64,000 nucleotides of DNA from Sinorhizobium medicae (GTDB lineage Bacteria > Pseudomonadota > Alphaproteobacteria > Rhizobiales > Rhizobiaceae): contig NZ_VITA01000018.1 in the NCBI RefSeq assembly GCF_007827695.1, forward strand, positions 1 through 64,000, read 5' to 3'. Positions 46,927 through 62,188 of the stretch are shown here, piece by piece. The notes under the pieces were generated by a model, which had not been told where the DNA came from, searched no databases, and saw nothing but the letters and a program-made list of their open reading frames with translations. Position 1 is the first letter of the stretch, and every line of letters starts with the position of its first letter. The position numbers and the translations under genes are program-made.

Positions 46927-47050
46927 AGCTGGCGGTCTGACGATTGCGACCAGCCACCCTGTCGCCTCCCTAGGATCAGCATTATACCGGCCCCACAACG
47001 ATGCGCGGTTCCGCAAAAGGAGACCGGGAGTAGGATGGGATCGCTATGCC

Positions 47051-48025
47051 TTACGCCGGGAACCTTCGCCTATAGTGTTGAATAACCTCAGGGTTGCGCA
47101 GATTAGTGGGCAACCCGCCTTCCAAGACGCGGATGGCTTCCGCCGCAGCTTCCGTCCCCATCCGCATCATGCTCTCCTCGGTAATGCCGGCGAGATGAGG
47201 CGTCACGATCACATTGTTGAGCCTGAAGTAAGGATGCTCGAGCGGCAGGGGCTGGGTGGAGAACACGTCGAGCGCCGCGCCCCCGATACGGCCCCCCTCT
47301 AGCGCCTGGATCAACGCTGCATCGTCCACTACGGGGCCGCGCGACACATTGACGAGGATCGTACCTGGCTTCATGCGCGCTATCCGATCGCGGCTTACAA
47401 GCCCGGTCGTCTCGGGTGTAAGCGGACAGCAGAGAACGACGATGTCCGCAGTCGAAACCAAGTCGTCGACCGAAACAAATCGTACACCATGGGGGAGGCT
47501 TGCCGGCGCGCGACTGTTGGCCACAATCTCCAGCCCAAACCCGTATTTTGCTATGCGGAAGACCGCCTTTCCCACACTACCCATGCCGACAATGCCCATA
47601 GTGCGGCCGGCGAGATCGAGCGCTCGGTCGCTGTGGGCTCGCCCAGCGCTCCACCCGATGTCTCTGAGATCCCGGTCCATCGGACGGAATTGACGCAGCA
47701 GCGCAAGCGAAACCATGAGGACGTGCTCCGCAACAGTCAGTGCATTCGCGCCCGGCACGTTGGCGATCAACACACCCGCCGCCGTGGCCGTATCATAAGG
47801 GATCATGTCGATCCCCGCGCCGTGCCTGATGACCGCACGCAGCATCGATGCGAGCTGGAAAAACGCCGGTGGGATCCGCGCGCGCACGATGACAATCTCC
47901 GCACCCGCGCCTTCCCGAAGCAGCGTCTCGGGATCGGGAGCGGACGCGATGCGCAAATCACCCGCGGCTTTCAGCAAAGCCTCGGCCTGGGGGTGCAGCG
48001 GATGGGTGGAGAAAATGACACTCAT
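47051..48025 (-). CDS. D-2-hydroxyacid dehydrogenase (NAD-dependent)
   Basis: A 324-residue protein from the ATG at 48025, preceded by gaggaagcc. The Rossmann motif GIVGMGSVGKAVFRIAKYGFG is central, catalytic Arg in VNVSRGPVVDD, Glu in EHPYFRL and His in VIVTPHLAGITEE. Family members reduce or oxidise glycerate, hydroxypyruvate or phosphoglycerate-like acids. Between the importer and the GntR/enolase genes, it fits a late step, such as reduction of a 2-keto acid made by the nearby dehydratase. Confidence 0.88.
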   Translation of the reverse strand: MSVIFSTHPLHPQAEALLKAAGDLRIASAPDPETLLREGAGAEIVIVRARIPPAFFQLASMLRAVIRHGAGIDMIPYDTATAAGVLIANVPGANALTVAEHVLMVSLALLRQFRPMDRDLRDIGWSAGRAHSDRALDLAGRTMGIVGMGSVGKAVFRIAKYGFGLEIVANSRAPASLPHGVRFVSVDDLVSTADIVVLCCPLTPETTGLVSRDRIARMKPGTILVNVSRGPVVDDAALIQALEGGRIGGAALDVFSTQPLPLEHPYFRLNNVIVTPHLAGITEESMMRMGTEAAAEAIRVLEGGLPTNLRNPEVIQHYRRRFPA

Positions 48026-48047
48026 CGGCTTCCTCTCACTCCACGGC

Positions 48048-48740
48048 CTATTCCACAACTGTCGCTGGCCCGCCGATCAGGCCCTTCCAGTAGCTTTCTG
48101 CGCCTTGAAGATGCGCGTTCATCAATGCCTGGGCGAGATTTCCGTCGCGTGCTAGCAGCGCCTCGTAAATGCGAATATGCTCGTCGTGCGAGCGACGGCT
48201 GCGGTCGAGATCCGCGAAGTAGATTGGGAGCCGCTTTTCGCCCATCGTGTAGTAAACGCTGCAGACACGGTGAAACACGCTATTTTTCGTCGCCCGGACG
48301 ATTTCCAGATGAAAGTCCCTGTCCTCGCGCGCGAGGCCCTCGCCTGCTGCGATCTTCCGCTCGGATGCGGCAAGAATTTCGCGCAGGCGCTCGTAATTTT
48401 CCTCCGTCGCCCGCGCGCTGGCGAGTTCCGCCGCCTTGATCTCGTGGATCTTGCGCAGTTCCACCGTCTCGTAGATCACAATCGGATCGAGGGGCACGCC
48501 TGCCCGCGCGAACAGTGCTATTGCCTCGACGCTCGCTTCAGTCGTCGTCAGATAGATGCCCGACTTCGCTCGGCGCTCCACGATACGCATGGCCTCAAGG
48601 ATTGCCAAGGCTTCCCGGACCTGCCCGCGGCTAACGGTGAAATGCTCGGCCAGTTCCCGCTCCGAGGGCGTTCGGCCGTTGCCGCTCGAACTCGAAAAAA
48701 GGTGGGCCGCTAGGTCCGATAGGAGGTTGCTTTCTTTCAT
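48048..48740 (-). CDS. GntR-family (FadR subgroup) regulator
   Basis: A protein of about 230 residues. HTH: TPSERELAEHFTVSRGQVREALAILEAMRIVERR. FCD domain with EDRDFHLEIVRATKNSVFHRV and a late ARDGNLAQALMNAHLQG. The ATG at 48740 overlaps the end of the enolase-superfamily gene upstream on the same strand. It is the only GntR regulator of this island and so the best candidate to bind the AAACTGGTT-type sites at 40889 and 50931. Confidence 0.86.
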   Translation of the reverse strand: MKESNLLSDLAAHLFSSSSGNGRTPSERELAEHFTVSRGQVREALAILEAMRIVERRAKSGIYLTTTEASVEAIALFARAGVPLDPIVIYETVELRKIHEIKAAELASARATEENYERLREILAASERKIAAGEGLAREDRDFHLEIVRATKNSVFHRVCSVYYTMGEKRLPIYFADLDRSRRSHDEHIRIYEALLARDGNLAQALMNAHLQGAESYWKGLIGGPATVVE

Positions 48741-48742
48741 CG

Positions 48743-49912
48743 TCACAGTCTTTGCGCGTGGTTCTCTAGGACGCGCTCGTTGATCGTAAACCCCAGACCG
48801 GGTCTATCGGGGATCTCTATCATACCGTCCTTTACGGCCACAGTGTCTTCGACGAGGTCGTGGATCATCGGGTTTGCACCGAGGGAGTATTCGACGACGA
48901 AGCTTGCCGGAGAAGCCGCACAGATCTGCAGTCCGGAGAAGAAACACGGAGCACCGGCCCACAGATGCGGAGCGAAACGGAGGTTGAAGGCACTGGCGAT
49001 CGCACCAATGCGCATCGCTTCCGTTATCCCGCCACAGAATGCCGGGTCGGGCTGGAATATATCGACCGCGCGCAGCACAGCAAGGTCTCGGAAGGCGAAA
49101 CGGGTCGCCTCGCTCTCTCCGGCCGCGATCGGCACGTTGCCGGCGGCACGCACCTCCGCCATGCCGTACTTGTCGTCCGCGATCACCGGCTCCTCGAACC
49201 AGGCGAGATCGAAGTCTTGGACGAGTTGGATGAACCGCTTAGCGTCAGCAACCGTGTAGGTGCCATGCGCATCGACCATGAGATCCACCGAAGGCCCCAG
49301 CGCCTTCCGCGCGGCACGCACGCGGGCTGCCGAGACATGCGGCCCGGCATCCATCGCACCGACCCGCATCTTGACCGACTTGAAGCCGCCACTGGCAATG
49401 TAGGATCGCAGTTGGTCGCCGATCTTCTCAGCTGTTTCCCATCCACCGGAAGCATAGGCAGGCAACCGATCCGCCTTACGTCCGCCAAGAAGCTTCCAAA
49501 CCGGCACGCCCAGCGACTTGCCGAGAATGTCCCACAGGGCAATGTCGACCGCACTGATCGCGGCGACAGAGAGGCCACGCCGTGCAAGTTCTGGCATCGC
49601 ATGCCCCGACGCCGCCGCCGTTTCGTGGCGCGTGCCGTTATAAAGCGTCTCCCAGATTGTGGAGATATCAGCGGGGTCGCGACCGATGAGCTGTCGCCCC
49701 ACCTCATGGTTGAGCATGTGTACGAGTGTGCCGTAAGTACCCGCGCTGCCCGCGGCGTTCTTGCCCTCGCCCCATCCAACTATGCCGTCATTCGTCTCGA
49801 TTCGCAGGATCGCCGCGTCGAAGGTCGTCAGGCGACCGAAATCGCTGCGATGCTGCCGACTTGCTTCGATGGGTATGCGAACCCACCAGGCCTGGACAGT
49901 CTTAATACGCAT
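48743..49912 (-). CDS. Enolase-superfamily (mandelate racemase group) protein
   Basis: A 389-residue enzyme from the ATG at 49912. Catalytic residues: K-x-R in GGFKSVKMRVG, Asp and His in MVDAHGTYT, Glu in WFEEPVI, Glu in AGESEATRF, Asp in FQPDPAF and His in FAPHLWAG. Racemase/dehydratase chemistry on a sugar acid is expected; the substrate is not. It lies between GntR and a sugar-epimerase gene, with 57 bp to the latter. Confidence 0.85.
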   Translation of the reverse strand: MRIKTVQAWWVRIPIEASRQHRSDFGRLTTFDAAILRIETNDGIVGWGEGKNAAGSAGTYGTLVHMLNHEVGRQLIGRDPADISTIWETLYNGTRHETAAASGHAMPELARRGLSVAAISAVDIALWDILGKSLGVPVWKLLGGRKADRLPAYASGGWETAEKIGDQLRSYIASGGFKSVKMRVGAMDAGPHVSAARVRAARKALGPSVDLMVDAHGTYTVADAKRFIQLVQDFDLAWFEEPVIADDKYGMAEVRAAGNVPIAAGESEATRFAFRDLAVLRAVDIFQPDPAFCGGITEAMRIGAIASAFNLRFAPHLWAGAPCFFSGLQICAASPASFVVEYSLGANPMIHDLVEDTVAVKDGMIEIPDRPGLGFTINERVLENHAQRL

Positions 49913-49969
49913 TTTGCCTCCCTGAACCTCACAGCGCGAGGGCCGTGAGGGCATGCTCGCCCCCGGTCG

Positions 49970-50857
49970 TCACTTGATCAGCGGCAGTATGGTCTCTGCT
50001 GTGATCCGCATCTGGTCGTCGTAGAACTTCTCAGTGAGCAAGCTCGATCCATGATCCTGGATGAACTTTAGCTGCTCCGGCGGGATATCAACCGGAGTGC
50101 GCTCCACCATGTCGGGATATTTGGCGGCCGGCGTGCGATCTACCGGTGCCACGAACTCATTCGTGAGCGCACCATCGTATCCGATCTCTTTCAGAGTGGC
50201 GACGATCTTCGGCCAGTCAAGATGACCCAGACCTGCCGCAAAGCGGTTGTTATCTGCCACGTGGAAGTCCAAAAGTCGATTTCCGGCGAGTCTGATTGCA
50301 TCGTATATGTCCTCCTCCTCGATATTTAGGTGGAAGGCATCAAGGCAGACACCGCACTCGGGACTGACTGCGTCGGCGAGCGCAAGCGCTTGCGCAGCAC
50401 GATTGAAGAGGTATGTCTCGAAACGGTTGAGCGGCTCGACCGCCAGCCGGACGCCTTTTTTCTGCGCGTGGGCGAAGCATTCCTTCGTCGCATCAACAAC
50501 CCACGTCCACTCCTCCTCCTCGGTGGCATCCGGAATGAGCTTGCCGACAGTTGCCGGCACGAGGGTAACGATTTCGCCTTCGAGTTCACTCACCATTGTG
50601 ATGACACTCTTTACGTAATCCACCGACTTTGCGCGCTGACTCTCGTCCTTGGCTGCGAAATTGCGCTCGCCCAAGGTTAGTGTCACCGCGCCCCAACAAC
50701 GGATGCCGTGTTCCTTAAGCAGCGCGCGAGTGTCCTTGATGTCGTATTGGGCCGGCTCACCCGAAATTTCGATGCTCTCGTAGCCATATTTTTTAATGCG
50801 CTTCAGCGTCACGGCGAGTGGCTCTGCTCGCATCCAGTTGTGCGTCGAAAGGTGCAT
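49970..50857 (-). CDS. TIM-barrel sugar phosphate isomerase/epimerase-like (first)
   Basis: A 295-residue protein from the ATG at 50857. It starts MHLSTHNWMRAEPLAVTLKRIKKYGYESIEISG and has VRLAVEPLNRFETYLFNRAAQALALADAV with the metal Glu, CGVCLDAFHLNIEEED with Asp and His, and DFHVADNNRFAAGLGHLDW with the later ligands. This is the IolE/D-tagatose 3-epimerase fold with a Mn/Mg site. It is divergent from a second such gene across a 316-bp control region. Confidence 0.87.
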   Translation of the reverse strand: MHLSTHNWMRAEPLAVTLKRIKKYGYESIEISGEPAQYDIKDTRALLKEHGIRCWGAVTLTLGERNFAAKDESQRAKSVDYVKSVITMVSELEGEIVTLVPATVGKLIPDATEEEEWTWVVDATKECFAHAQKKGVRLAVEPLNRFETYLFNRAAQALALADAVSPECGVCLDAFHLNIEEEDIYDAIRLAGNRLLDFHVADNNRFAAGLGHLDWPKIVATLKEIGYDGALTNEFVAPVDRTPAAKYPDMVERTPVDIPPEQLKFIQDHGSSLLTEKFYDDQMRITAETILPLIK

Positions 50858-51173
50858 AATGTCCTCCGAGACTATCTTTATCCGCGGTACCCAGAGGGTG
50901 CGCGCGGCCCTCCTCAACTTGGGCGAAACGAAACTGGTTCGGCCAATTCTTGCTTTTCAGTTGGTTTTATCCTAAACGAGCCCGATCAGCAATGCGTCTG
51001 CTCATTCGATTTTTCCCGCGAAATTCAACGAATACGTTGCGTAAAAGAGCATCGCTGGGGGCTCATTTGGAATGAGTGACGTTGCTTGCTTGACCTTGAT
51101 CGTAGAATTGGTAATACCAGACGCGTGAGTGCAGGAGACTGGCCGCGTTTGCGAGAACCTGGAGGGCGCACCC
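50858..51173. promoter_or_regulatory. Divergent control region between two epimerase genes
   Basis: 316 bp without a gene. The sequence AAACTGGTTCGGCCAATTC at 50931-50949 matches the operator-like site at 40889. A ggagggc ribosome-binding site for the plus-strand gene lies near 51161-51167. Confidence 0.55.
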
Positions 51174-52025
51174 ATGAAGATCGGTATGTGCATGTTTCTC
51201 TGGACCACAAGCGTTGGCCGAAAACATGAGAAACTACTGCGGGACATTCATGCGACCGGCTTCGATGGGGTAGAGATTCCGATCTTCGAGGGCAGCCCGG
51301 ATGACTACCGCCGACTTGGCGGGCTGCTCGATGACATAGGCCTGGAGCGCACGGCGGTTTCAGCCATGCCCGACCCTTCCATGAACCTGATTTCGCCTGA
51401 TCCTGAGACACGTAATCGCGGCATCACCTACACGCAATGGGCTATCGACTGCACCGCGGCTCTCGGTGCGGACAGGCTGAGCGGCCCTCTGCATTCTACT
51501 CTTGGGCACTTTTCCGGCGCCGGGCCGACGGCCGCGGAACTAAGGTGGTCCATTTCCTCGCAGCGGACGATCGGCGAACATGCTGCCAAGCGCGGCGTCA
51601 CAGTTGCGCTTGAAGCGCTGAACCGCTTCGAATGTTACCTCTTGAACACAATGGATGACCTTGCCGCCCATCTCGATGAGATTGGCCATCCGAATATTCG
51701 TGCGATGTACGATACGTTCCACAGCAATATCGAAGAAGCCGACCCTATCGGAGCTTTCACCCGTAACAAGGATTGCATCGTACACGTCCACATTTCGGAG
51801 AACGACCGCGGCGTCCCGGGGCGCGGGAACATTCCATGGACCGAGACCTTCAAGGCAATTCGCGCGAGCGGCTATGACGGCTGGCTTACAATCGAGGCCT
51901 TTGGTCGCGCGTTAAAGGATCTTGCGGCAGCAACGAAGGTCTGGCGCGATTTCTCCGAGACGCCCGAAGCGGTCTATCGCGAAGGATACCGTCACATCCG
52001 GACCGGATGGCAGGCAGCAGTTTGA
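51174..52025 (+). CDS. TIM-barrel sugar epimerase, D-tagatose/psicose 3-epimerase-like (second)
   Basis: A 283-residue protein from the ATG at 51174. It starts MKIGMCMFLWTTSVGRKHEKLLRDIHATGFDGVEIP. Metal site: Glu in VTVALEALNRFECYL, Asp and His in RAMYDTFHSNIEEAD, His in VHVHISENDRGVPGRGNIPW, and Glu in WLTIEAFG. This closely follows the ketose 3-epimerase pattern. With the other epimerase, the enolase-superfamily enzyme, the hydroxyacid dehydrogenase and the importer, it makes a complete uptake-and-conversion set for a rare sugar or polyol. Confidence 0.87.
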   Translation: MKIGMCMFLWTTSVGRKHEKLLRDIHATGFDGVEIPIFEGSPDDYRRLGGLLDDIGLERTAVSAMPDPSMNLISPDPETRNRGITYTQWAIDCTAALGADRLSGPLHSTLGHFSGAGPTAAELRWSISSQRTIGEHAAKRGVTVALEALNRFECYLLNTMDDLAAHLDEIGHPNIRAMYDTFHSNIEEADPIGAFTRNKDCIVHVHISENDRGVPGRGNIPWTETFKAIRASGYDGWLTIEAFGRALKDLAAATKVWRDFSETPEAVYREGYRHIRTGWQAAV

Positions 52026-52171
52026 GGGATCCGGTTATGCGAGTTGCAAGGCACACTTAGAACGTTTGGCGCTCTACCCTCCGGCTTCCCAATCGGCCGT
52101 ACGGAACGAGTTTGTCGAACGTGGGCATAGGGTGCCTGATTGCCCGTGCATCGTTAGTGTTTCCGCTCAGG

Positions 52172-52819
52172 TCAGGCCGCACGCGCAGGGCCGGCGGGAA
52201 AGATCCCGGACATGACCGTAAACCCTTTGATTCGCTTGACGCGATCGCACCAGCGGCGAATTGCCGGGTAATCCTGCCTGGAGACCCCACCCTCTTCGGA
52301 CAGCATGACGTAGGGGAAGCACGCGATGTCGGCGACTGTCGGATGTTGCCCCGAGCAGATCCAATCACGCCGTTCCTGCTCGCCGAACCAGAGGTGTTCG
52401 TCGAGGATGCGAAACAGCCTGTGCGCCCCGGCTCGAGCCGACTCGACGTCAAGATCGTAGAATAGGCCGTCATGGAGACGTGCGGCCGAAGCCGTGCCGG
52501 TGATACCGTCGGCAAAGGCGAGCCATTGGCTGATCTCGCCGAGAAGCGCCGGATCGCTGCGCGGGTACCAGGTGCCGGAAGGATCATATTTGGAGGCGAG
52601 ATAGACGAGGATCGCCTGCGCGTCGCGCAGCACCAGTCCGTCATCCTCGATCACCGGCAGTTGTCCGAGCGGATTGAGTCTCAGGAACCAATCCGACTTG
52701 TGTTCGCGGCCGGGGTAGAAATCGACCGGTACCGTATTGTACTCGATGCCGAGCATGCTCATCAGAAGTCTGAGCTTGTAGCAATTGCCCGAGAGTTCGT
52801 AATCGTAGAGGGTGATCAT
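52172..52819 (-). CDS. Glutathione S-transferase-fold protein, NdmE-like
   Basis: A 215-residue GST-fold protein. The N-terminal thioredoxin-like part is MITLYDYELSGNCYKLRLLMSMLGIEY, with a later PVIEDDGLVLRDAQAILVYLASKY (cis-Pro and Asp binding glutathione); the C-terminal part is all-helical. It is the last gene of a three-gene unit, 10 bases after the Rieske-reductase gene. In Pseudomonas putida CBB5 the gene at this place, ndmE, encodes a GST-like protein needed structurally for the N7-demethylase complex. Homology of position is clear; the same role is inferred. Confidence 0.85.
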   Translation of the reverse strand: MITLYDYELSGNCYKLRLLMSMLGIEYNTVPVDFYPGREHKSDWFLRLNPLGQLPVIEDDGLVLRDAQAILVYLASKYDPSGTWYPRSDPALLGEISQWLAFADGITGTASAARLHDGLFYDLDVESARAGAHRLFRILDEHLWFGEQERRDWICSGQHPTVADIACFPYVMLSEEGGVSRQDYPAIRRWCDRVKRIKGFTVMSGIFPAGPARAA

Positions 52820-52829
52820 CGGGCAGCTC

Positions 52830-54596
52830 CTAGAGATCGAGGACGAGGCGCGCGGACCTGGCGCGCGACACGCAGGTCATGATCTTGGTGCCGGACTTGC
52901 GCTCGGCATCGTTGAGATAGACGTCCTGGTGGTCTGGCTCGCCCTCGATCACCGTCGCAAGACAGGTGCCGCAGGCACCCTGCTCGCAGGATGAGGGCAT
53001 GTCGATTCCGGCTTCGCGCATGGTCTCCAGAATGGTTTTGCCGGCGGTCACCTGCAAAGTCACGCAGGAGCGCGCTAAGGCCACCTCGAAGCTCGAGCTG
53101 TCATCGATCGTGTTGGTGTTCTTGAAATATTCGAAATGCACCGCGGTTTCGGGCCAGCCGAGGTCCGCTGCGATCCGGCGCGCCGCCTCCAACATAGGCC
53201 CGGGCCCGCATAGATAGACGTGCATATCGGGCCGGTACCCGGAAAGAATCTCCTTAAGCTTAGCGGCAGTCGTTTCCGGGAGAAACCCCAGATGGGGCTT
53301 CAGTGCCTCGCCCAGGAGCGCGGTCTTTTCCGGGAATGCGAGTTGTTCCTGGTTTTGGGCAAAATAGTGGAACTCGTAGTCGAGGTTCTGATTCTTGAGC
53401 GCCTGCGCCATTGCAAGGAGCGGCGTAACGCCGATGCCGCCTGCAACGAAGATGGTGCGCACCGCATCGCGGCGCAGTGGGAAATTGTTGCGCGGCTCCG
53501 AGATGGCGAGAAGGTCGCCCTCGCGGACGGTCTCATGCATGCACAGCGAGCCCCCCATCGAATCCCGCTCAAGCTTGACACCAATGACATAGCTGTCGCT
53601 TTCGCCCGGACCATTGGTGATCGAGTATTGCCGGACCAGCCCATTCGGCATGTGCACGTCGATATGGGCGCCGGGTTGGAAAGTGGGCAGCAGCCCCTGG
53701 ACCGGACGCAGCTCGAACGCGGCGATCCCGTCGGCAGCCAGCCACTTCCGCGCGACCGTCACACGGATGGTCGCCTTGCGGCCATGGGCGGTCATTTCCG
53801 GCATCTCGGCAAGCTCCGGCGAGACGCGCTCGATTACCGGCTCGAGCGGCGCCGGCTGCGGTGCGGCTTGAGCCTCGCGCTCCGCGATCTCGCGGAGCTT
53901 CGAAAGCCGTTCGTTATGATGGCGCAGGATGGCCAGCCGTTCGGCGCCCTGGGGGCCGGCATCGAGTACGCCGCGGATGACCGATCGGCTGGAGTCGACC
54001 GGCTGGACGAAGAAGACGACAAGCGTCTCAGCCCCCTCCTCGTAGGCCCGGAGCGCCACCGAAAAAGTATCGCTCCCCTCCAGCGACACATTCGCCGTGT
54101 TACCTTGAAGCCTGCCATTCGGCTGAAAGCGATATCCCGTCAGCGCCGAGACAACCGCATCGGCCGGCGCATTGAGCGGGATACCGCGAAGCGCCAGTTG
54201 TTCGCCTTCTCGGAGGCCGGCAACGTCCGGCACCCGTCCATGCGGCTCCTCAGCCGACCAGACCAGACCGTAACGCTCGACGCCGGCGAAGGTGCGGTTG
54301 GTGATGGTGCGTGCCGGCGCGTCGGCCGGATGCGCGGGTATATAGGTGCAGCCGGCGGTGCGGTTGGAATAGCGCCAGCCATGATACTGACATTTCAGCT
54401 CCCGACCGTCGTTGATGCCGATCGACAGGCGGACGCCGCGATGAAGGCAGCGGTTTTCCCAGATGTTGACGTAGCCGTCGTCGGCGCGCCAGACGGCGAA
54501 TTCGCGGCCGAGCAATTGGGCGTGAAACACGTGGCGGAACGGCAGGTCATAGCTCGCGGCGATGGGATGCCATCTGGTCTTGGCGGTATCGAGCAT
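52830..54596 (-). CDS. Three-cofactor Rieske/flavin/ferredoxin reductase, NdmD-like
   Basis: A 588-residue protein with four parts in order. A Rieske domain (C50, H52, C69, H72, spacing C-x-H-x16-C-x2-H) is followed by a short oxygenase-like segment (about 150-240) with no iron site. Then comes a PDR/VanB-type flavin reductase (RQYS at 322-325, AGGIGVTP at 385-392), and a plant-type ferredoxin (C537, C542, C545, C575). Ordinary PDR reductases lack the Rieske domain; NdmD of caffeine degraders has exactly this addition. It would pass electrons from NADH to the partner oxygenase at 54621-55526. Confidence 0.88.
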   Translation of the reverse strand: MLDTAKTRWHPIAASYDLPFRHVFHAQLLGREFAVWRADDGYVNIWENRCLHRGVRLSIGINDGRELKCQYHGWRYSNRTAGCTYIPAHPADAPARTITNRTFAGVERYGLVWSAEEPHGRVPDVAGLREGEQLALRGIPLNAPADAVVSALTGYRFQPNGRLQGNTANVSLEGSDTFSVALRAYEEGAETLVVFFVQPVDSSRSVIRGVLDAGPQGAERLAILRHHNERLSKLREIAEREAQAAPQPAPLEPVIERVSPELAEMPEMTAHGRKATIRVTVARKWLAADGIAAFELRPVQGLLPTFQPGAHIDVHMPNGLVRQYSITNGPGESDSYVIGVKLERDSMGGSLCMHETVREGDLLAISEPRNNFPLRRDAVRTIFVAGGIGVTPLLAMAQALKNQNLDYEFHYFAQNQEQLAFPEKTALLGEALKPHLGFLPETTAAKLKEILSGYRPDMHVYLCGPGPMLEAARRIAADLGWPETAVHFEYFKNTNTIDDSSSFEVALARSCVTLQVTAGKTILETMREAGIDMPSSCEQGACGTCLATVIEGEPDHQDVYLNDAERKSGTKIMTCVSRARSARLVLDL

Positions 54597-54620
54597 CGTT
54601 CTCTCCAGAATTCTGAAACG

Positions 54621-55526
54621 TCAGGTGGCGGCCGGGATGACCCCGTAGGTCACGCCCTTCTGGCTGAGCCATCGGCGGTAGGCGATCGCCGACTTGTCGG
54701 CTCGGATCGGGGTTTCGGCGCGCGGATCGAGCGGCAGTCGCTTCGGGAACTGGTTCTCCAGGATCGGCTTGTCCTGGCCGAAAATGGTCTGCTGGAAGCG
54801 CTTGATCACCTTGTCTTCATTCTCATCGTCAAGGACGCAGAGCATCATATGTGCGCGGATGTGCTCCTGATCCATCGGCTGGAGGAAAACGGCTATGACG
54901 TCGAGCCGCGTCTCGTCTACCGGGCTCGATTTGTAGAGGATCGAGCAGTAGGGATGCGGCACCCGGTAGATGTATTCGACGTCGGCACCTTCTGTCGAAG
55001 CGGTCGAGGCTTTGGGCTGAAAGAAGCGACAGCGCGTCGCGACAATCTCGTCGCGCTCGACCGAGAGCTCGACATCGTATTCCTTGACCTCTGTGTGCGG
55101 TTCCGCCCCGAGAATGTCAGTATGGACATAGGGAAAGTGGCCCATGTCGAGGAAGTTCTCGATGGCGCGTGGCGCAGAGACGTTCACACCGACGGTGGCA
55201 GCGTTGAGCCTCCGGCGGTCGGGCTCGGCATATTCAGGAATGAAAAACAGTTCGGTCGGCGGAGTGCCGAGCGATGTCCAGATGTAGCCGTAGGCGACCT
55301 TGGCCGGCAGCGCCCTCGTCAGTGCGCCGGGTTCAAAGGGACAGCCGGCTACCAGGTCCGGGCGCGAAAGCCACACTGCGGCGTTGCCGCCGCCATCCGT
55401 CGCGTAACTGACACGTTCTTCCAGCAGCACCGTTTCCTGGACGAAACCCGCAGGTACCTCGGCGAGCGCTGCAAGCGGGTGCCACAGGTCGAGGACGACC
55501 TGATCCTGGCATTTGGTGGGCGTCAT
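54621..55526 (-). CDS. Rieske-less oxygenase catalytic subunit, NdmC-like
   Basis: A 301-residue protein with the fold of a Rieske oxygenase alpha subunit. The non-heme iron site is complete: D127, H130 and H135 in ENFLDMGHFPYVH, and D252 in FGQDKPILENQ. The N-terminal ~90 residues still look Rieske-like (LWHPLAALAEVPAG at the start, AYGYIWTSLG at the end) but contain no C-x-H/C-x2-H ligands, so the cluster is lost. NdmC, the methylxanthine N7-demethylase, has the same loss and uses the Rieske domain of NdmD. It heads the operon; ggagg precedes the ATG. Confidence 0.85.
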   Translation of the reverse strand: MTPTKCQDQVVLDLWHPLAALAEVPAGFVQETVLLEERVSYATDGGGNAAVWLSRPDLVAGCPFEPGALTRALPAKVAYGYIWTSLGTPPTELFFIPEYAEPDRRRLNAATVGVNVSAPRAIENFLDMGHFPYVHTDILGAEPHTEVKEYDVELSVERDEIVATRCRFFQPKASTASTEGADVEYIYRVPHPYCSILYKSSPVDETRLDVIAVFLQPMDQEHIRAHMMLCVLDDENEDKVIKRFQQTIFGQDKPILENQFPKRLPLDPRAETPIRADKSAIAYRRWLSQKGVTYGVIPAAT

Positions 55527-55864
55527 CTGTTGAATCCTCCGTAAATGGCTGCTGTGCCTATGACCGGGGCCAGAAACGCGCCATAGGTGACCACGCGGAG
55601 AGAAACTCCATTGCTGCGAAGGGCAGATCCGCTCATCGCATCCTCCCTGGCTAGCACTTCCCCATGAACCTAGCTCTGATGGGATCATTGGAAACACAAG
55701 ATTGGATATCAATCAATAAAAAATTGTCTGCCAAATATTCTTTTTTGATTGACAGCCCGCGCTGATTGAATACCGATATGCAAATCGTAACGCGGTATAT
55801 GCAGCCGGTCGATGCTCCATATGCTGTCCCGCAGTCAATTCTGTGGATCGTGGAGAAATTTGTC
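55527..55864. promoter_or_regulatory. Divergent control region of the NdmC-like operon and GntR gene
   Basis: 338 bp, AT-rich at 55676-55770. TCAATCAA at 55709-55716 is the exact complement of TTGATTGA at 55745-55752, and TGATTGA recurs at 55763-55769. The three copies in mixed orientation are a candidate operator for the GntR regulator starting near 55865. Confidence 0.45.
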
Positions 55865-56632
55865 ATGAGCAGCCGTTCGCAGGCGATTGCCGACATCTTG
55901 ACCCGTGCAATCATCGATCACCGGCTCGTGCCGGGCTGCAAGCTGGGCGAACGTGAGCTTGCCGAAATCTTCAAGGTCAGCCGGATTGTCATTCGCCAGG
56001 CATTGATCCGGCTCGCAGACGATGGTCTGGCGCAGATCGAACGCAATCGCGGTGCATTCGTCGCCCGCCCCAGCATGCAGGAGGCGATGGAGATCTACGA
56101 CGCGCTGACGCTGGTCGAACAAGGCGTGGCCGCACAGCTCAGCGACAGGCTTGGCCCTGCGGGGTTTGCCGAGCTGCGCCAGCACGTGGAACGGCAGCGT
56201 CAGGCCATCGAAGCGGGCAATGATGCGCTCGCCGACGTTCTCGGCCAGGAGTTCCACACGCTCTTCGTCCGTCTGAGCCGCAATAAGGTGATGCAGGAAA
56301 TCCATGCTCAACTTGTGCGGCGCACAACGCTTCTGCGCTCGTTGATCTCCGCCGACTTCGACTATTGCAATCTGCTCGACGATCATCAGCGGGTGATCGA
56401 CCTGCTCGAACGAGGCCGGCTGAAGCAGGTCATGGAACTGATCGATGCGCATCATCGCAGCGTCGTGCGCGGCTATATCATGGATCGACAGGTCTTTCCG
56501 GAGCTGACGCCACGCGAGGCGCTTCAGCCCTATATCGACGGCAAGATCGACAAGGCGCCGAAACCGCTGCGCAAGAAAACCGCAGAAAGCGGCGGGACCG
56601 GCACGCACGGCCACGTCCACGCCACGAAATAG
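55865..56632 (+). CDS. GntR-family (FadR/VanR subgroup) regulator
   Basis: A protein of about 255 residues. HTH: KLGERELAEIFKVSRIVIRQALIRLADDGLAQIERNRG; helical FCD domain with GQEFHTLFVRLSRNKVMQEIHAQL and late LMELIDAHHRSVVRGY-type end. The C-terminal tail (KAPKPLRKKTAES, then HGHVHATK) is long, basic and histidine-rich, unusual for the family. I choose the ATG at 55865, with ggag upstream; starts up to 33 codons earlier are open. It is divergent from the NdmC-like operon and directly before the BMP importer, so it likely controls both. Confidence 0.83.
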   Translation: MSSRSQAIADILTRAIIDHRLVPGCKLGERELAEIFKVSRIVIRQALIRLADDGLAQIERNRGAFVARPSMQEAMEIYDALTLVEQGVAAQLSDRLGPAGFAELRQHVERQRQAIEAGNDALADVLGQEFHTLFVRLSRNKVMQEIHAQLVRRTTLLRSLISADFDYCNLLDDHQRVIDLLERGRLKQVMELIDAHHRSVVRGYIMDRQVFPELTPREALQPYIDGKIDKAPKPLRKKTAESGGTGTHGHVHATK

Positions 56633-56685
56633 ACCCGGCGCCACAAGCCGGGCGAAACGACACGAACCGACAAAGGGGTACTGCC

Positions 56686-57780
56686 ATGTTCAGACTGACC
56701 AGACGACAATTTCTTCGATATTCCGGCGCCACCGGTGTGGCACTCAGCACCGGCGGCCTTGCGCAGGCTGCCAGCGCCGAAGACCCTCTTAAGATCGGCG
56801 TTGTCTATGTGTCGCCAATCGCGGAAATCGGTTGGACAAAACAGCACAGCCTCGGGGTAGATGCGATCAAGAACGAGTTCGGCGACAAAGTCGCCATTAC
56901 CGTCCTCGACAACATCTTCATGCCGCAGGATGCCGAGCGGGTGTTCCGCGAGCTTGCTGCCTCCGGCAATCAACTAATCTTCGGCACCAGCTTCTCGCAT
57001 GGCACGCCGCTGCAGAAAGTGGCGCCGCGCTTCCCCAAAACTGCGTTCGAGCACTGTTCGGGCATTGTGCACCTCGCAAATCTCGGCACCTTCGAAGCCA
57101 AATATTACGAGGGCACTTTCGTCGCAGGTGCTGCCGGCGCGCATATGAGCAAGTCCGGCAAAATCGGTTTCATCGGCGGCTTCCCAATTCCCGACATTGT
57201 CGGGCCGGCGAACGCGCTGCTGCTTGGCGCCCAGAGCGTCAATCCGGAGATCACTTGCAATGCCATTTTTCTCAATTCCTGGTTCGATCCGGGAAAGGAG
57301 AAGGAAGCGGCCAATACTCTGCTGTCGCAAGGATGTGACGTCATCTGCTCCATGACCGATACGGCAACCGGCGTGCAGGTCGCCGGCGAAGGCGGCGCCT
57401 GGTCGATCGGCTATGCTAGCGATATGGCCAAGTTCGGCTCCGGCAAGCACCTCACAGCCTTCGTCCTTGACTGGTCCACCAATTACGTCCGCGCGGCGAA
57501 GGGGGTGGCGGAAGGGAACTGGAAAGCCGAGGCACGCTGGGATGGCTTGGCCGCCGGCGTGGTCAAGATGGCGCCGTATAACGAGGCGATCCCCGCCGAT
57601 GTCCAAGGCAAGCTCAAGCAGCTCGAGGCCGACATCGGTGCCGGCAAACTCCATCCCTATGCCGGCGAATTGAAGGACCAGGACGGCAACGTGAAAGTGG
57701 CGGCAGGGTCTGTCCTCTCCGATACGGATATTCGGGGCATGAACTGGTTCGTCAGGGGAATGATCGGCAAGCTCGGCTGA
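56686..57780 (+). CDS. BMP-family ABC transporter substrate-binding protein (Tat signal)
   Basis: A 364-residue binding protein. The N-terminus has a twin-arginine motif, LTRRQFLRYSGATG, then a hydrophobic stretch to ASA-ED, so export by Tat is likely. Mature part: IGVVYVSPIAEIGWTKQHSLGVDAI, the BMP-type start, and NQLIFGTSFSHGTPLQKVA. BMP proteins bind nucleosides, purines and related compounds, unlike sugar-binding PBP1 members. It opens a four-gene importer operon next to the NdmCDE-like genes. Substrate not determined. Confidence 0.87.
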   Translation: MFRLTRRQFLRYSGATGVALSTGGLAQAASAEDPLKIGVVYVSPIAEIGWTKQHSLGVDAIKNEFGDKVAITVLDNIFMPQDAERVFRELAASGNQLIFGTSFSHGTPLQKVAPRFPKTAFEHCSGIVHLANLGTFEAKYYEGTFVAGAAGAHMSKSGKIGFIGGFPIPDIVGPANALLLGAQSVNPEITCNAIFLNSWFDPGKEKEAANTLLSQGCDVICSMTDTATGVQVAGEGGAWSIGYASDMAKFGSGKHLTAFVLDWSTNYVRAAKGVAEGNWKAEARWDGLAAGVVKMAPYNEAIPADVQGKLKQLEADIGAGKLHPYAGELKDQDGNVKVAAGSVLSDTDIRGMNWFVRGMIGKLG

Positions 57781-57793
57781 GCCGCCGGCAAAA

Positions 57794-57825
57794 GGACATG
57801 ACCGGCGGACATGCCGGTCGTGTCC
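57794..57825 (+). promoter_or_regulatory. Intercistronic hairpin after BMP binding-protein gene
   Basis: GGACATGACCGGC and GCCGGTCGTGTCC pair over 13 positions with one wobble, around a 6-base loop. It lies 14 bases after the stop of the binding-protein gene and before the ATPase gene. Confidence 0.65.
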
Positions 57826-57868
57826 AGATCCCTCCCCTCGGCTTTACCAATATTCGGCAGGAGCGGCC

Positions 57869-59387
<1,519 letters not shown>

Positions 59388-59404
<17 letters not shown>

Positions 59405-60455
59405 ACAAAGGCCGGAACCGTCCGCCCAGATGCGGATCGCCGCTCCGGTGATCGCGACGGCGCTGACCTTTCTTGCCGGCTCCGTCCTGTTTGCCGCGCT
59501 GGGCTATGATCCGCTGATCACACTGCACGCTTTCTTCGTCGCCCCGCTCAATTCCATCAACGGCCTGTCCGAATGGCTGCTGAAGGCTTCGCCCCTGATC
59601 CTGATCGCTTGCGGGCTCGCGGTCGGATTCCGTGCCAATATCTGGAACATCGGCGCCGAAGGACAACTGATCATCGGTGCCATCGCCGCCTGCGGCGTCG
59701 GCCTCTTTTATCCCAATCCGGAGAGCCCGCTCCTGCTGCCGCTGATGTTTCTCGCCGGCACAGGCGCCGGCATGGTTTGGGCGGCGATCCCGGCTTTTCT
59801 CAGGGCCCGCATGAACACCAACGAGATCCTCGTCACGCTCATGCTGACCTATATCGCGACGCTGTTGCTATCCTTTCTGGTGCACGGCCCGTGGCGCGAT
59901 CCGGCTGGGTTCAATTACCCGCAAACCGCGCTTTTGCCCCCGGCGGCAATGTTCGAGCCTTTCGATTATGCCTATCGGCTCAATCCATCTGTCTTCATCA
60001 CGGCCGTGGCGGTGGTGCTTATGTGGCTCTTCGCCGATCGGAGCTTTCTCGGCTACAAGATGTCGGTGAGCGGCGCCGCTCCGCTTGCGGCACGCTATGC
60101 AGGTTTTCGTGAGTCCTCCGCAGTCTGGACAGGATTGCTTGCCGGCGGCGCGGCGGCAGGAATTGCCGGCATGGCCGAAGTCGCCGGTCCTCTCGGGCAA
60201 TTGTCGCCGCAGATTTCGCCCGGCTATGGCTTTGCCGCAATCATCGTTGCGTTCATCGGACGCCTGAACGCATTCGGCATCGTCCTCGGGGGGCTTTTGA
60301 TGTCGCTTCTCTTCCTCGGCGGCGAAACCGTTCAGATGACGCTCGGCCTTCCGGCAGCGCTCACCCGCATCTTCCAAGGGGTTCTTCTGTTCTTTCTGCT
60401 CGCCGCCGATTTCTTCATCTACTACCGCCTTCGCCACATTCCGGAGCACGCGTGA
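59388..60455 (+). CDS. ABC transporter permease (BMP-type, first)
   Basis: A 355-residue permease from a TTG at 59388, chosen because aaggag lies eight bases before it; the ATG at 59364 is an alternative. Eight to ten membrane helices; PLILIACGLAVGFRANIWNIGAEGQLIIGAIAACG is the typical NupP/YufP-type tract. It shares four bases with the next permease gene. The heterodimeric permeases fit the two-domain ATPase and the BMP binding protein. Confidence 0.86.
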
Positions 60456-61375
60456 TGGACCTTTTCATTGCCATTTTCACCGGCACCATTATCGCCGCGA
60501 CGCCATTGATTTTCGCATCCCTCGGGGAGCTCGTCGTCGAAAAATCCGGCGTACTCAACCTCGGCCTGGAGGGAATGATGCTGATGGGAGCGGCTTTTGC
60601 CTTTTGGGCGGTGATCTCCGGCCTCCCCATGCCGGTAGCCATTGCGGCCGGCGCACTCGCCGGCGCCGCCACCTCGCTTCTCTTCGGCGTTCTGGCGCTG
60701 ACTTTTCTGACCAACCAGTATGCAGCCGGCCTGGCGCTCGCCATATTCGGATCGGGGGTCTCGGCGTTCCTCGGGCGCGGTTTCGGCAGCACGCCGATCG
60801 ATGCGCTCAAACGCATCCATATACCCCTGCTGTCCGATATCCCTGTGGTCGGGCCGCTGTTCTTCCGCTTCGACCCGATGGTCTACCTGGCGATCGCTAT
60901 ATTCGGGCTCATCACCTGGTTCCTTTACCGGACCAAAGGCGGCCTCATTCTCCGCACCATCGGCGAATCGCCCGAGACGTCACACGCGATCGGTTATCCG
61001 GTCACCAGGATCCGATATATGGCGGTGCTTTTCGGTGGGCTGATGGCCGGCCTGGCCGGCGCATATCTGTCGGTCGCCTACACCCCACTCTGGGTGGAGA
61101 ACATGACGGCCGGTAAGGGCTGGATTTCGCTGGCACTCGTCGTTTTTGCGACATGGCGGCCGCTGCGCGTCCTGATCGGCGCCTGGTTGTTCGGCGGCAT
61201 GACGATCCTGCAGCTACAAGGGCAGGCTCTCGGCATAGCAGTCCCGTCAGAGCTCCTCTCCGCCCTTCCCTACCTCGCAACGATCATCGTTCTGGTGATC
61301 ATTTCGCAAAATCGCCAGATGCTGGCACTGCACTTTCCGGCCTCGCTGGCAAAGCCATTTCGCGCAGCGAGCTGA
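60452..61375 (+). CDS. ABC transporter permease (BMP-type, second)
   Basis: A 307-residue permease with about eight to ten helices. The tract FASLGELVVEKSGVLNLGLEGMMLMGAAFAFW is characteristic of the second permease in nucleoside-type importers (NupQ/YufQ). A GTG at 60452 and an ATG at 60455 both fit. It ends the importer; the AadA-like gene follows after about 30 bases on the same strand. Confidence 0.88.
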   Translation: MMDLFIAIFTGTIIAATPLIFASLGELVVEKSGVLNLGLEGMMLMGAAFAFWAVISGLPMPVAIAAGALAGAATSLLFGVLALTFLTNQYAAGLALAIFGSGVSAFLGRGFGSTPIDALKRIHIPLLSDIPVVGPLFFRFDPMVYLAIAIFGLITWFLYRTKGGLILRTIGESPETSHAIGYPVTRIRYMAVLFGGLMAGLAGAYLSVAYTPLWVENMTAGKGWISLALVVFATWRPLRVLIGAWLFGGMTILQLQGQALGIAVPSELLSALPYLATIIVLVIISQNRQMLALHFPASLAKPFRAAS

Positions 61376-61405
61376 TCACCGGATCACGATGAGTTGAGAT
61401 GCGGG

Positions 61406-62188
61406 ATGCAATCAGCGACACCACCACAGCCGAGCGACCAGGCGCTGGCAGCATCGGAGACGATCAGCAGGATCCTTCAGGACGCGCTTCTCGCCGTCTA
61501 TCTGCATGGATCGGCCGTTTCGGGTGGGTTGCGGCCGCAGAGTGACGTTGACCTCCTGGCCGTCACAGACCGCCCCATGACTGACGAACAACGCAGAGCT
61601 CTTCTTTCGGCTTTGCTGCGCATTTCCGGGCGTCATCCCCGCCCGCCGGGAGCTCCACGCTGCGTCGAATTGATGGTGTTTCTGCAGGTAGACATCTCCG
61701 CGCCGATGTTTCCCGTTCGGGCTGAATTCATTTACGGCGAATGGTTGCGGGATGCCTTTGAATCCGGGCAACTCCCGATGCCGGTGTCCGATCCGGAGAA
61801 TACGCTGGTGCTCGCTCAGGCTCGACAAGAGGCAGTGCCGATATTAGGTCCAGAGCCTACGGGGCTCCTGCCCTCCATTCCGTTGGAACACGTCCGCGGC
61901 GCAATGCGCGAGGCGCTTCCCGTATTGGTCGACGGTCTCCATGGGGATGAGCGGAACGTATTGCTGACCCTCGCGCGGATGTGGCGCACGTCGGTCAGCG
62001 GCGACTTCATCACCAAGGATGCGGCGGCCGAATGGGCGGCGAACCAGATGCCGGACACGGAAGCTCAGACACTGCTCTATGCGCGTGACGCCTATTTGGG
62101 CAGAGTGAATGACGAATGGAGCAACCGGAAAACCGCAGCGCAGAGAACGGCAGCGCTTCTGCGTCAACGCGTGGCAGAGGCCCTATGA
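61406..62188 (+). CDS. AadA-like aminoglycoside nucleotidyltransferase-domain protein
   Basis: A protein of about 260 residues. The nucleotidyltransferase motif is LHGSAVSGGLRPQSDVDLLAVTD with the two metal aspartates; the second half resembles ANT(3'')/AadA, including TSVSGDFITKDAAAEWAANQMPD. So adenylylation of streptomycin- or spectinomycin-like compounds is plausible, but the neighbourhood is purine transport, not a resistance cassette, and no integron site is seen. I take the ATG at 61406; a TTG four codons earlier is open. Confidence 0.78.
   Translation: MQSATPPQPSDQALAASETISRILQDALLAVYLHGSAVSGGLRPQSDVDLLAVTDRPMTDEQRRALLSALLRISGRHPRPPGAPRCVELMVFLQVDISAPMFPVRAEFIYGEWLRDAFESGQLPMPVSDPENTLVLAQARQEAVPILGPEPTGLLPSIPLEHVRGAMREALPVLVDGLHGDERNVLLTLARMWRTSVSGDFITKDAAAEWAANQMPDTEAQTLLYARDAYLGRVNDEWSNRKTAAQRTAALLRQRVAEAL

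What the first reader, a model, noticed from the sequence alone, without database searches (positions are those of the whole stretch)
52172..55526. NdmC-NdmD-NdmE-like N-demethylase module in a rhizobial-type genome
Three minus-strand genes have the same order and domain make-up as ndmC, ndmD and ndmE of Pseudomonas putida CBB5: a Rieske oxygenase subunit without a Rieske cluster, a reductase with an extra N-terminal Rieske domain, and a GST-fold protein. Seen directly: the missing cluster ligands in the first, the four Rieske ligands in the second, and the intact 2-His-1-Asp site in the first. Inference: N-demethylation of a methylxanthine, methyluric acid or similar N-methyl heterocycle. No ndmA or ndmB homologue lies in the window.
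Basis: partly seen in the sequence, partly recalled or inferred. Interest (0 to 1): 0.9.

Follow-up and report, generated by a model that had tools for sequence, protein, structure and literature searches.

The report
Likely split Rieske methylpurine demethylase
A nitrogen-fixing root bacterium carries a three-gene enzyme set closely related to the one that caffeine-eating bacteria use to cut a methyl group off purines; its neighbours in many bacteria suggest that it strips methyl groups from imported purine molecules, but the exact target is unknown.

Summary
Window 52172-55526 (Sinorhizobium medicae) encodes C (oxygenase without a Rieske cluster, iron triad H130/H135/D252 kept), D (Rieske domain fused to a phthalate-type reductase) and E (GST-fold), in the order and make-up of ndmC-ndmD-ndmE. 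A 2015 review already mentions ndmCDE homologues in Sinorhizobium and Mesorhizobium, function unknown, so the homology is not new. Added here: (1) C is outside the NdmC clade, in a sister clade. (2) Many relatives carry a tandem second Rieske-less subunit, C'; in the window C' is a deletion scar. (3) In 80 related loci, E follows D in 78, a BMP-type ABC binding protein is nearby in 60, formaldehyde-detoxification genes in 26, purine-deaminase-like genes in 22. (4) A palindrome ATTGnTATCCAAT lies between the GntR gene and C, once in the genome; its looser form is in 40 of 41 such gaps. (5) The middle of D may be a decayed oxygenase catalytic domain, and Rhizobium plasmids carry a stand-alone relative of D's front half. 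Best reading: NADH-driven N-demethylation of an imported N-methylpurine. Substrate and activity are untested.

The parts
54621..55526 (-). C: Rieske-less oxygenase catalytic subunit (301 aa), NdmC-like sister clade; iron site H130, H135, D252, bridging D127
52830..54596 (-). D: Rieske domain + remnant domain + phthalate-dioxygenase-reductase-type flavin/NADH and plant-type ferredoxin domains (588 aa), NdmD-like
54252..54596 (-). D residues 1-115: Rieske domain, ligands C50, H52, C69, H72
53847..54251 (-). D residues 116-250: possible decayed Rieske-oxygenase catalytic domain without iron ligands
   Evidence: locally confident fold: strand-helix-strands-long helix; one profile match to C above shuffles, another not; 20% identity to P. 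putida NdmD against 54% for the Rieske part; inference
52172..52819 (-). E: GST-fold protein, NdmE-like (215 aa)
55523..55636 (-). Deletion scar of C' (second Rieske-less subunit): first codons next to last codons, about 795 bp of the S. meliloti gene missing
   Evidence: same scar in S. medicae ml29
55701..55713 (-). Palindrome ATTGATATCCAAT, putative operator of the adjacent GntR regulator; only copy of ATTGnTATCCAAT in the held genome
55865..56632 (+). GntR/FCD-family regulator, divergent from C; start inferred from the ml29 annotation (the open frame begins at 55766)
56686..57780 (+). BMP/PnrA-like ABC substrate-binding protein; start inferred from the ml29 annotation
57869..59404 (+). ABC transporter ATP-binding protein of the BMP-type system
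59388..60455 (+). ABC permease 1 of the BMP-type system; start inferred from the ml29 annotation
60455..61375 (+). ABC permease 2 of the BMP-type system; start inferred from the ml29 annotation

Best explanation
C, D and E form one NADH-dependent oxygenase complex that removes an N-methyl group from a purine-type compound imported by the adjacent BMP-type ABC transporter, releasing formaldehyde. Electrons go from NADH through the flavin and plant-type [2Fe-2S] of D to the Rieske [2Fe-2S] of D and on to the mononuclear iron of C; E holds C and D together. The divergent GntR regulator binds the ATTGnTATCCAAT palindrome between the two transcription units and controls both. Shown here: gene order, domains, intact ligands, linkage, conserved palindrome. 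Inferred: complex formation, electron path and demethylation (from the characterised NdmCDE complex), regulator binding, purine substrate (from gene context). The exact substrate is open; 7-methylxanthine or a related N-methylpurine is the first candidate.
For: Architecture and order equal NdmCDE, for which PMC4408171 reports a complex that N7-demethylates 7-methylxanthine (passages). Formaldehyde link: FrmA in the held flanks of 25 of 80 loci, FrmA or FghA in 26 of 80; FrmA of two further loci, L046 and L050, is over the TIGR02818 cut-off; annotated FrmA and FghA lie beside C-D-E in L144 and L145. Background: 0-4 FrmA copies over the cut-off in each of 20 related genomes. Purine link: BMP binding protein in 60 of 80 loci, purine-deaminase-like genes in 22 of 80, against 5 BMP genes at E 1e-10 in the own genome; ureidoglycolate lyase and three xanthine dehydrogenase genes over cut-off beside the set in L077; 8-oxoguanine deaminase over cut-off in L049. 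The own genome has two guanine deaminases and two xanthine dehydrogenase small subunits over cut-off. ATTG-N5-CAAT in 40 of 41 GntR-C gaps (window, S. meliloti 1021 and S. medicae ml29 among the 41), 0.04 expected from base shuffles; ATTGnTATCCAAT once in the own genome.
Against: No assay. FrmA/FghA do not lie in the window and were matched in none of 23 Actinomycetota-titled loci nor the one Chloroflexota-titled locus (many of these are cut short). C is outside the NdmC clade, so its substrate may differ. The best solved matches of C by sequence and fold are SxtT and GxtA/SxtDIOX, ahead of NdmA/NdmB. The 80 loci are the best of 331 candidates and rich in close relatives, so counts are not independent. 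Deaminase calls rest partly on weak tblastn matches (many at 27-41% identity). The genes on the other side of E resemble sugar-acid enzymes, below the curated cut-offs, not purine genes. The palindrome was not found in seven stretches beside C genes of L050, L144, L145 and L146, nor in L048 or L049. The set is patchy: full-length D in 4 of 33 genomes of the genus and 6 of 398 of the phylum, own genome counted in both.
Confidence: 0.7

Rival explanations
1. The set hydroxylates a purine ring carbon (HpxDE-like xanthine or hypoxanthine oxidation) instead of removing a methyl group.
For: HpxD/HpxE-type genes are distant relatives and appear in the searches (Pantoea hit); purine context is shared; PMC7373994 (passages) ties hpxDE to oxidation of hypoxanthine and xanthine; no FrmA/FghA matched in Actinomycetota-titled loci.
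Against: Split Rieske/catalytic architecture and the GST partner match NdmCDE; FrmA or FghA in 26 of 80 loci; the own genome has two xanthine dehydrogenase small subunits, so a second xanthine oxidation route is not needed.
Confidence: 0.13
2. It is an N-demethylase for a non-purine plant N-methyl compound (for example trigonelline or a betaine met in the legume rhizosphere).
For: Plasmid of a nodulating species; such compounds are met by Sinorhizobium, and Rieske oxygenases do demethylate betaines (both recalled).
Against: Linkage to BMP-type transporters and purine-catabolism genes in many lineages, including MAGs that are not legume symbionts; the glycine betaine oxygenase model GbcA matches D weakly and C not at all.
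Confidence: 0.1
3. In S. medicae the set is decaying: loss of C' has left C, D and E without a main function.
For: C' deletion scar in the window and disrupted C' in L043 and L044.
Against: C, D and E are open and 87-93% identical to S. meliloti 1021 proteins; C is at least 99% identical in 13 S. medicae plasmid records; transporter, regulator and palindrome are kept. Many relatives have C without a matched C'.
Confidence: 0.07

Closest known systems
NdmCDE N7-demethylase of Pseudomonas putida CBB5 (reference loci here: P. putida MT178 plasmid L144, Paraburkholderia caffeinilytica L145, G287 L050; the CBB5 proteins themselves were available only as PDB chains of NdmA, NdmB and part of NdmD)
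   Same: Gene order C-D-E, C without Rieske cluster, Rieske fused to the reductase, GST-fold third protein, GntR gene nearby, formaldehyde-detoxification genes in part of the relatives
   Different: C sits in a separate clade; no ndmA/ndmB found in the genome; BMP-type ABC transporter where L144 and L145 have a nucleobase:cation symporter; tandem C' in many relatives; the palindrome was not found in the L050, L144 and L145 stretches checked
NdmA and NdmB methylxanthine N1/N3-demethylases (6ick, 6icl)
   Different: NdmA/NdmB keep their own Rieske cluster; C does not
SxtT and GxtA (SxtDIOX) Rieske oxygenases
   Different: Structures solved with saxitoxin-type compounds (PDB titles); they keep a Rieske domain (matched by D); only about 24% identity to C
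Phthalate dioxygenase reductase (2pia)
   Different: No Rieske front half
HpxDE
   Same: Distant Rieske oxygenase plus PDR-type reductase acting on purines
   Different: In the Pantoea hit the Rieske part and the reductase are in two genes; no GST partner (recalled)

Membership tests
NdmCDE | Contiguous C-D-E genes on one strand | tested here: met
NdmCDE | C lacks the Rieske ligands and keeps the 2-His-1-carboxylate site | tested here: met
NdmCDE | D has an extra N-terminal Rieske domain on a PDR-type reductase | tested here: met
NdmCDE | E is GST-fold and follows D | tested here: met
NdmCDE | C groups with NdmC of verified caffeine-type operons | tested here: not met
   Unrooted 77-row tree: 13 reference rows (two of them, L050 and L144, from operons with NdmB or NdmA+NdmB verified) on one side of a 100/97 branch; branch parting these plus C' from the window's C clade 99/93
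NdmCDE | Accompanied by ndmA and ndmB | tested here: not met
   whole held genome searched with an NdmB
NdmCDE | frmA/frmB beside the set | tested here: not met
   No such gene beside the set in the window; FrmA or FghA in 26 of 80 related loci
NdmCDE | N7-demethylation of 7-methylxanthine by a C-D-E complex | not testable with these tools
   needs purified proteins
HpxDE | Oxygenase subunit bears its own Rieske cluster (recalled) | tested here: not met
Canonical alpha3 Rieske oxygenase | Rieske and catalytic domains in one chain | tested here: not met
   C lacks the cluster motif; the Rieske domain sits on D

The most novel reading that the evidence does not exclude
The wider C-D-E family, of which caffeine NdmCDE would be a specialised branch, is a pathway for methylated nucleobases from RNA and DNA turnover: modified bases or nucleosides are imported by BMP-type transporters, deaminated by guanine/adenine-type deaminases (for example 7-methylguanine to 7-methylxanthine) and stripped of their methyl group by C or C' into ordinary purines. 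Its machine arose by complementary decay of two Rieske oxygenases: one lost the cluster (C), the other lost the iron site (front half of D), and Rhizobium plasmids still carry a relative of that front half as a separate gene.
Probability: 0.3. Interest if true: 0.75.

Novelty: new variant of a known kind. Interest (0 to 1): 0.55.

Why it matters
NdmCDE is known as a caffeine enzyme. Sister sets in rhizobia, Roseobacters, Acidimicrobiia MAGs and a Dehalococcoidia MAG, tied to BMP-type importers and purine catabolism and with an NdmB-like oxygenase matched in the flanks of only 3 of 80 loci, suggest an older and broader job: recycling N-methylpurines. That makes an open question directly testable: which methylated purine do nodulating bacteria use? 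The C'/C pair and the stand-alone Rieske form also give natural pieces to study how a Rieske oxygenase works when its two metal sites sit on different proteins.

Tried and rejected
Rejected: that the set is an artefact or chance ORFs (conserved in 80 loci); that C is simply NdmC; that the sugar-acid-like genes beside E belong to the module (no match to them in the stretches held for S. meliloti 1021, L008, or for L043-L045; S. medicae ml29, L009, does have them). The TIM-barrel gene before C in L144, L146 and L147 has no blastp match at E 1 or better to the window proteins.

Led nowhere: Rfam search of 47000-62000, no match at gathering threshold; six S. meliloti locus tags guessed from position, no paper; a survey of 369 genomes of the class of G287 found a D like that of L050 (E 1e-100) only in G287 itself, one of its family in 11 of 299. 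The VIA comparison of D showed no Rieske oxygenase in its 50 rows, which the reductase half fills, so the remnant-domain idea rests on the predicted fold and profile comparison only. The D model is middling overall (pLDDT 73.4, pTM 0.46), with the Rieske loop and ferredoxin part low. Profile results: D residues 130-250 against 55 C-type rows, probability 2.2; residues 100-250 gave 92 and 1-250 gave 98, but both include shared Rieske-domain sequence; residues 128-250 against 9 full oxygenases, score 19.5, below the best of 40 shuffles (25.9); against the 77 C-type rows, score 36.7 over 20 columns, best of 40 shuffles 20.9, reversed 12.1; against both sets together 35.6.

Trees: the 141-row tree used the L050 NdmC as its only caffeine-type row, with NdmB and one Rieske-bearing oxygenase as outgroups; it grouped that NdmC with C' (SH-aLRT 95) but warned that long branches meet there. 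For the 77-row tree I dropped both outgroups, thinned the rows by hand and added 12 reference rows, so it is unrooted. Identities do not tell whether C or C' is nearer to NdmC (about 43-51% for both).
Full report
What is there. The window belongs to a Sinorhizobium medicae genome (C is 100% identical to S. medicae plasmid records such as that of WSM419; the window is part of contig C18 of a 6.5-Mb genome). Genes C, D and E lie at 54621-55526, 52830-54596 and 52172-52819, all minus strand. C matches VanA_C and KshA_C but no Rieske model; D matches Rieske, NAD-binding and 2Fe-2S ferredoxin models; E matches GST models. C has no CxH...CxxH motif; D has one at residue 50 and a plant-type cluster motif at 537. 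Across 78 aligned C-type rows N124, D127, H135 and D252 are in 78 of 78 and H130 in 77 of 78. The four Rieske ligands of D are invariant in 40 of 40 D rows.

Against the known system. I located caffeine-type operons by sequence. In L144 (P. putida MT178 plasmid) two genes match solved NdmB (6icl, E 9.5e-236) and NdmA (6ick, E 1.1e-229), and the ferredoxin end of its D matches the solved NdmD fragment (E 2.5e-49); in L050 (G287) one gene matches NdmB (5e-203). The L144 order is FrmA, ndmA, GntR, ndmB, nucleobase:cation symporter, TIM-barrel gene, C, D, E, fghA, with two small genes not listed here. The window proteins share 49% (C), 37% (D) and 65% (E) identity with these. PMC4408171 (passages read) reports that NdmC, NdmD and NdmE form a complex that N7-demethylates 7-methylxanthine, that NdmE is postulated to align the Rieske cluster of NdmD with NdmC, and that 18 organisms with ndmCDE homologues of unknown function were found, predominantly Sinorhizobium and Mesorhizobium. 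So the homology itself is in print; the listings of my paper searches showed no paper on the function of these homologues, and the original 2013 paper is not held.

C is a sister, not NdmC. In a 77-row unrooted tree the 13 reference rows (two from operons with verified NdmA/NdmB, the rest chosen by likeness) form one side of a 100/97 branch, the C' rows one side of a 100/99 branch, and these two together are parted from the window's C clade by a 99/93 branch. An earlier 141-row tree with two outgroups and one reference row gave the same grouping, with a long-branch warning.

C' and its loss. S. meliloti 1021 has a second Rieske-less subunit, C', just upstream of C (49% identical to the window's C). 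Two C-family genes sit just upstream of D in 42 of 80 related loci. In the window the first codons of C' stand next to its last codons and about 795 bp are missing (55523-55636); S. medicae ml29 has the same scar. L043 and L044 have C' broken in other ways.

How widespread. Full-length D was found in 4 of 33 genomes of the genus and 6 of 398 drawn from the phylum, the own genome counted in both, so it is an accessory set. A scan of 84,980 species genomes gave 331 relatives of D among 352 pattern matches, of which the best 80 were kept. Many of the 80 are close relatives and only 54 have at least 3 kb on both sides, so the counts below are neither independent nor complete.

Context in relatives. 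Of 80: C-family gene directly upstream of D 70; E directly after D 78 (partial matches at contig ends included); GntR relative 38; BMP-type binding protein 60; FrmA 25; FrmA or FghA 26; purine-deaminase-like gene 22; NdmB-like full oxygenase 3. By record title: of 23 Actinomycetota loci 0 have FrmA or FghA, 11 BMP, 16 a deaminase-like gene; the one Chloroflexota locus has a deaminase-like gene; of the other 56, 25 have FrmA, 11 FghA, 49 BMP and 5 a deaminase-like gene. Thus the formaldehyde link is seen in Proteobacteria only and the deaminase link mainly in Actinomycetota. Representative FrmA, FghA, adenosine deaminase, 8-oxoguanine deaminase, ureidoglycolate lyase and xanthine dehydrogenase genes pass curated cut-offs; the adenine-deaminase-like gene of L087 and the amidohydrolase of L148 do not reach theirs. 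Twenty related genomes hold 0-4 FrmA copies over cut-off and the own genome 5 BMP genes, so crowding around D is well above background.

Regulation. Between GntR and C (or C') ATTG-N5-CAAT occurs in 40 of 41 gaps (38 of the scan loci plus the window, S. meliloti 1021 and S. medicae ml29), with 0.04 expected over the set from base shuffles; 36 of the 41 hold ATTGnTATCCAAT (the sequences are related, so descent explains part of this). ATTGnTATCCAAT occurs once in the whole own genome, at window 55701-55713. The looser form was not found in seven stretches beside C genes of L050, L144, L145 and L146, nor in L048 and L049. A local operator of the divergent GntR gene is the natural reading; binding is inferred.

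Mechanism proposed. NADH reduces D; electrons pass its flavin and ferredoxin cluster to its Rieske cluster and on to the iron of C through D127; C hydroxylates an N-methyl group, which leaves as formaldehyde; E holds C and D together. E is the best conserved of the three against P. putida (65%) and is present in 22 of 23 Actinomycetota-titled loci, a phylum that mostly uses mycothiol (recalled); D66 and A67, where GSTs usually have Glu-Ser (recalled), are each kept in at least 95% of 83 E rows. This favours a structural role over glutathione chemistry; it is inference.

Substrate. BMP-family proteins include nucleoside-transporter components (title and abstract start of PMC7093131 in a listing). 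The own genome has two guanine deaminases and two xanthine dehydrogenase small subunits over cut-off, so a product such as xanthine could be used. No ndmA/ndmB orthologue was found, so full caffeine breakdown by this route is unlikely. An N-methylated base or nucleoside from plants or from RNA turnover fits best; which one is open.

Verdict. It is a new variant of a known kind, with a well-supported purine context and a testable, undetermined substrate.

Noticed in passing
L148:3767-11955 (Rhizobium indicum plasmid): Variant with a stand-alone Rieske protein, Rieske-less C, GST, 8-oxoguanine-deaminase-like amidohydrolase and BMP-type transporter; the Rieske protein is matched at 60% identity or more in 123 plasmid records.
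   Followed up: partly
L045:13080-19110: Second purine-looking cluster in a Sinorhizobium relative: Rieske oxygenase, PDR-type reductase, adenosine deaminase and BMP-type transporter; the oxygenase is matched in 20 of 80 loci, often weakly.
   Followed up: no
L129:7370-8032 region: A Rieske-bearing oxygenase most similar to C' (39%) near a C gene, a possible intact relative of the ancestor of C.
   Followed up: partly
window 61394-62188: Nucleotidyltransferase gene annotated in S. medicae ml29 as aminoglycoside nucleotidyltransferase ANT9, directly after the BMP-type transporter genes.
   Followed up: no
window 47051-52025: Two TIM-barrel epimerase-like genes, a mandelate-racemase-family gene, a FadR-type regulator and a hydroxyacid dehydrogenase: a sugar-acid-like cluster next to E.
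   Followed up: partly
L050:3123-3716: Second GST-fold gene (46% to window E) near FrmA in the caffeine-type locus of G287.
   Followed up: no
S. meliloti 1021 L008:15384-17317: GntR then BMP gene; by order and annotation these may be SMa1505 and SMa1507 (not verified). PMC11387232 lists SMa1505 among regulators found only in the symbiotic network, PMC4941405 lists SMa1507 as found at pH 7.0 and not 6.1 (passages).
   Followed up: partly
G688:C4:97770-99502 (L140): A D 99-100% identical to that of G287 falls in two overlapping frames, and its C match also comes in two pieces.
   Followed up: no
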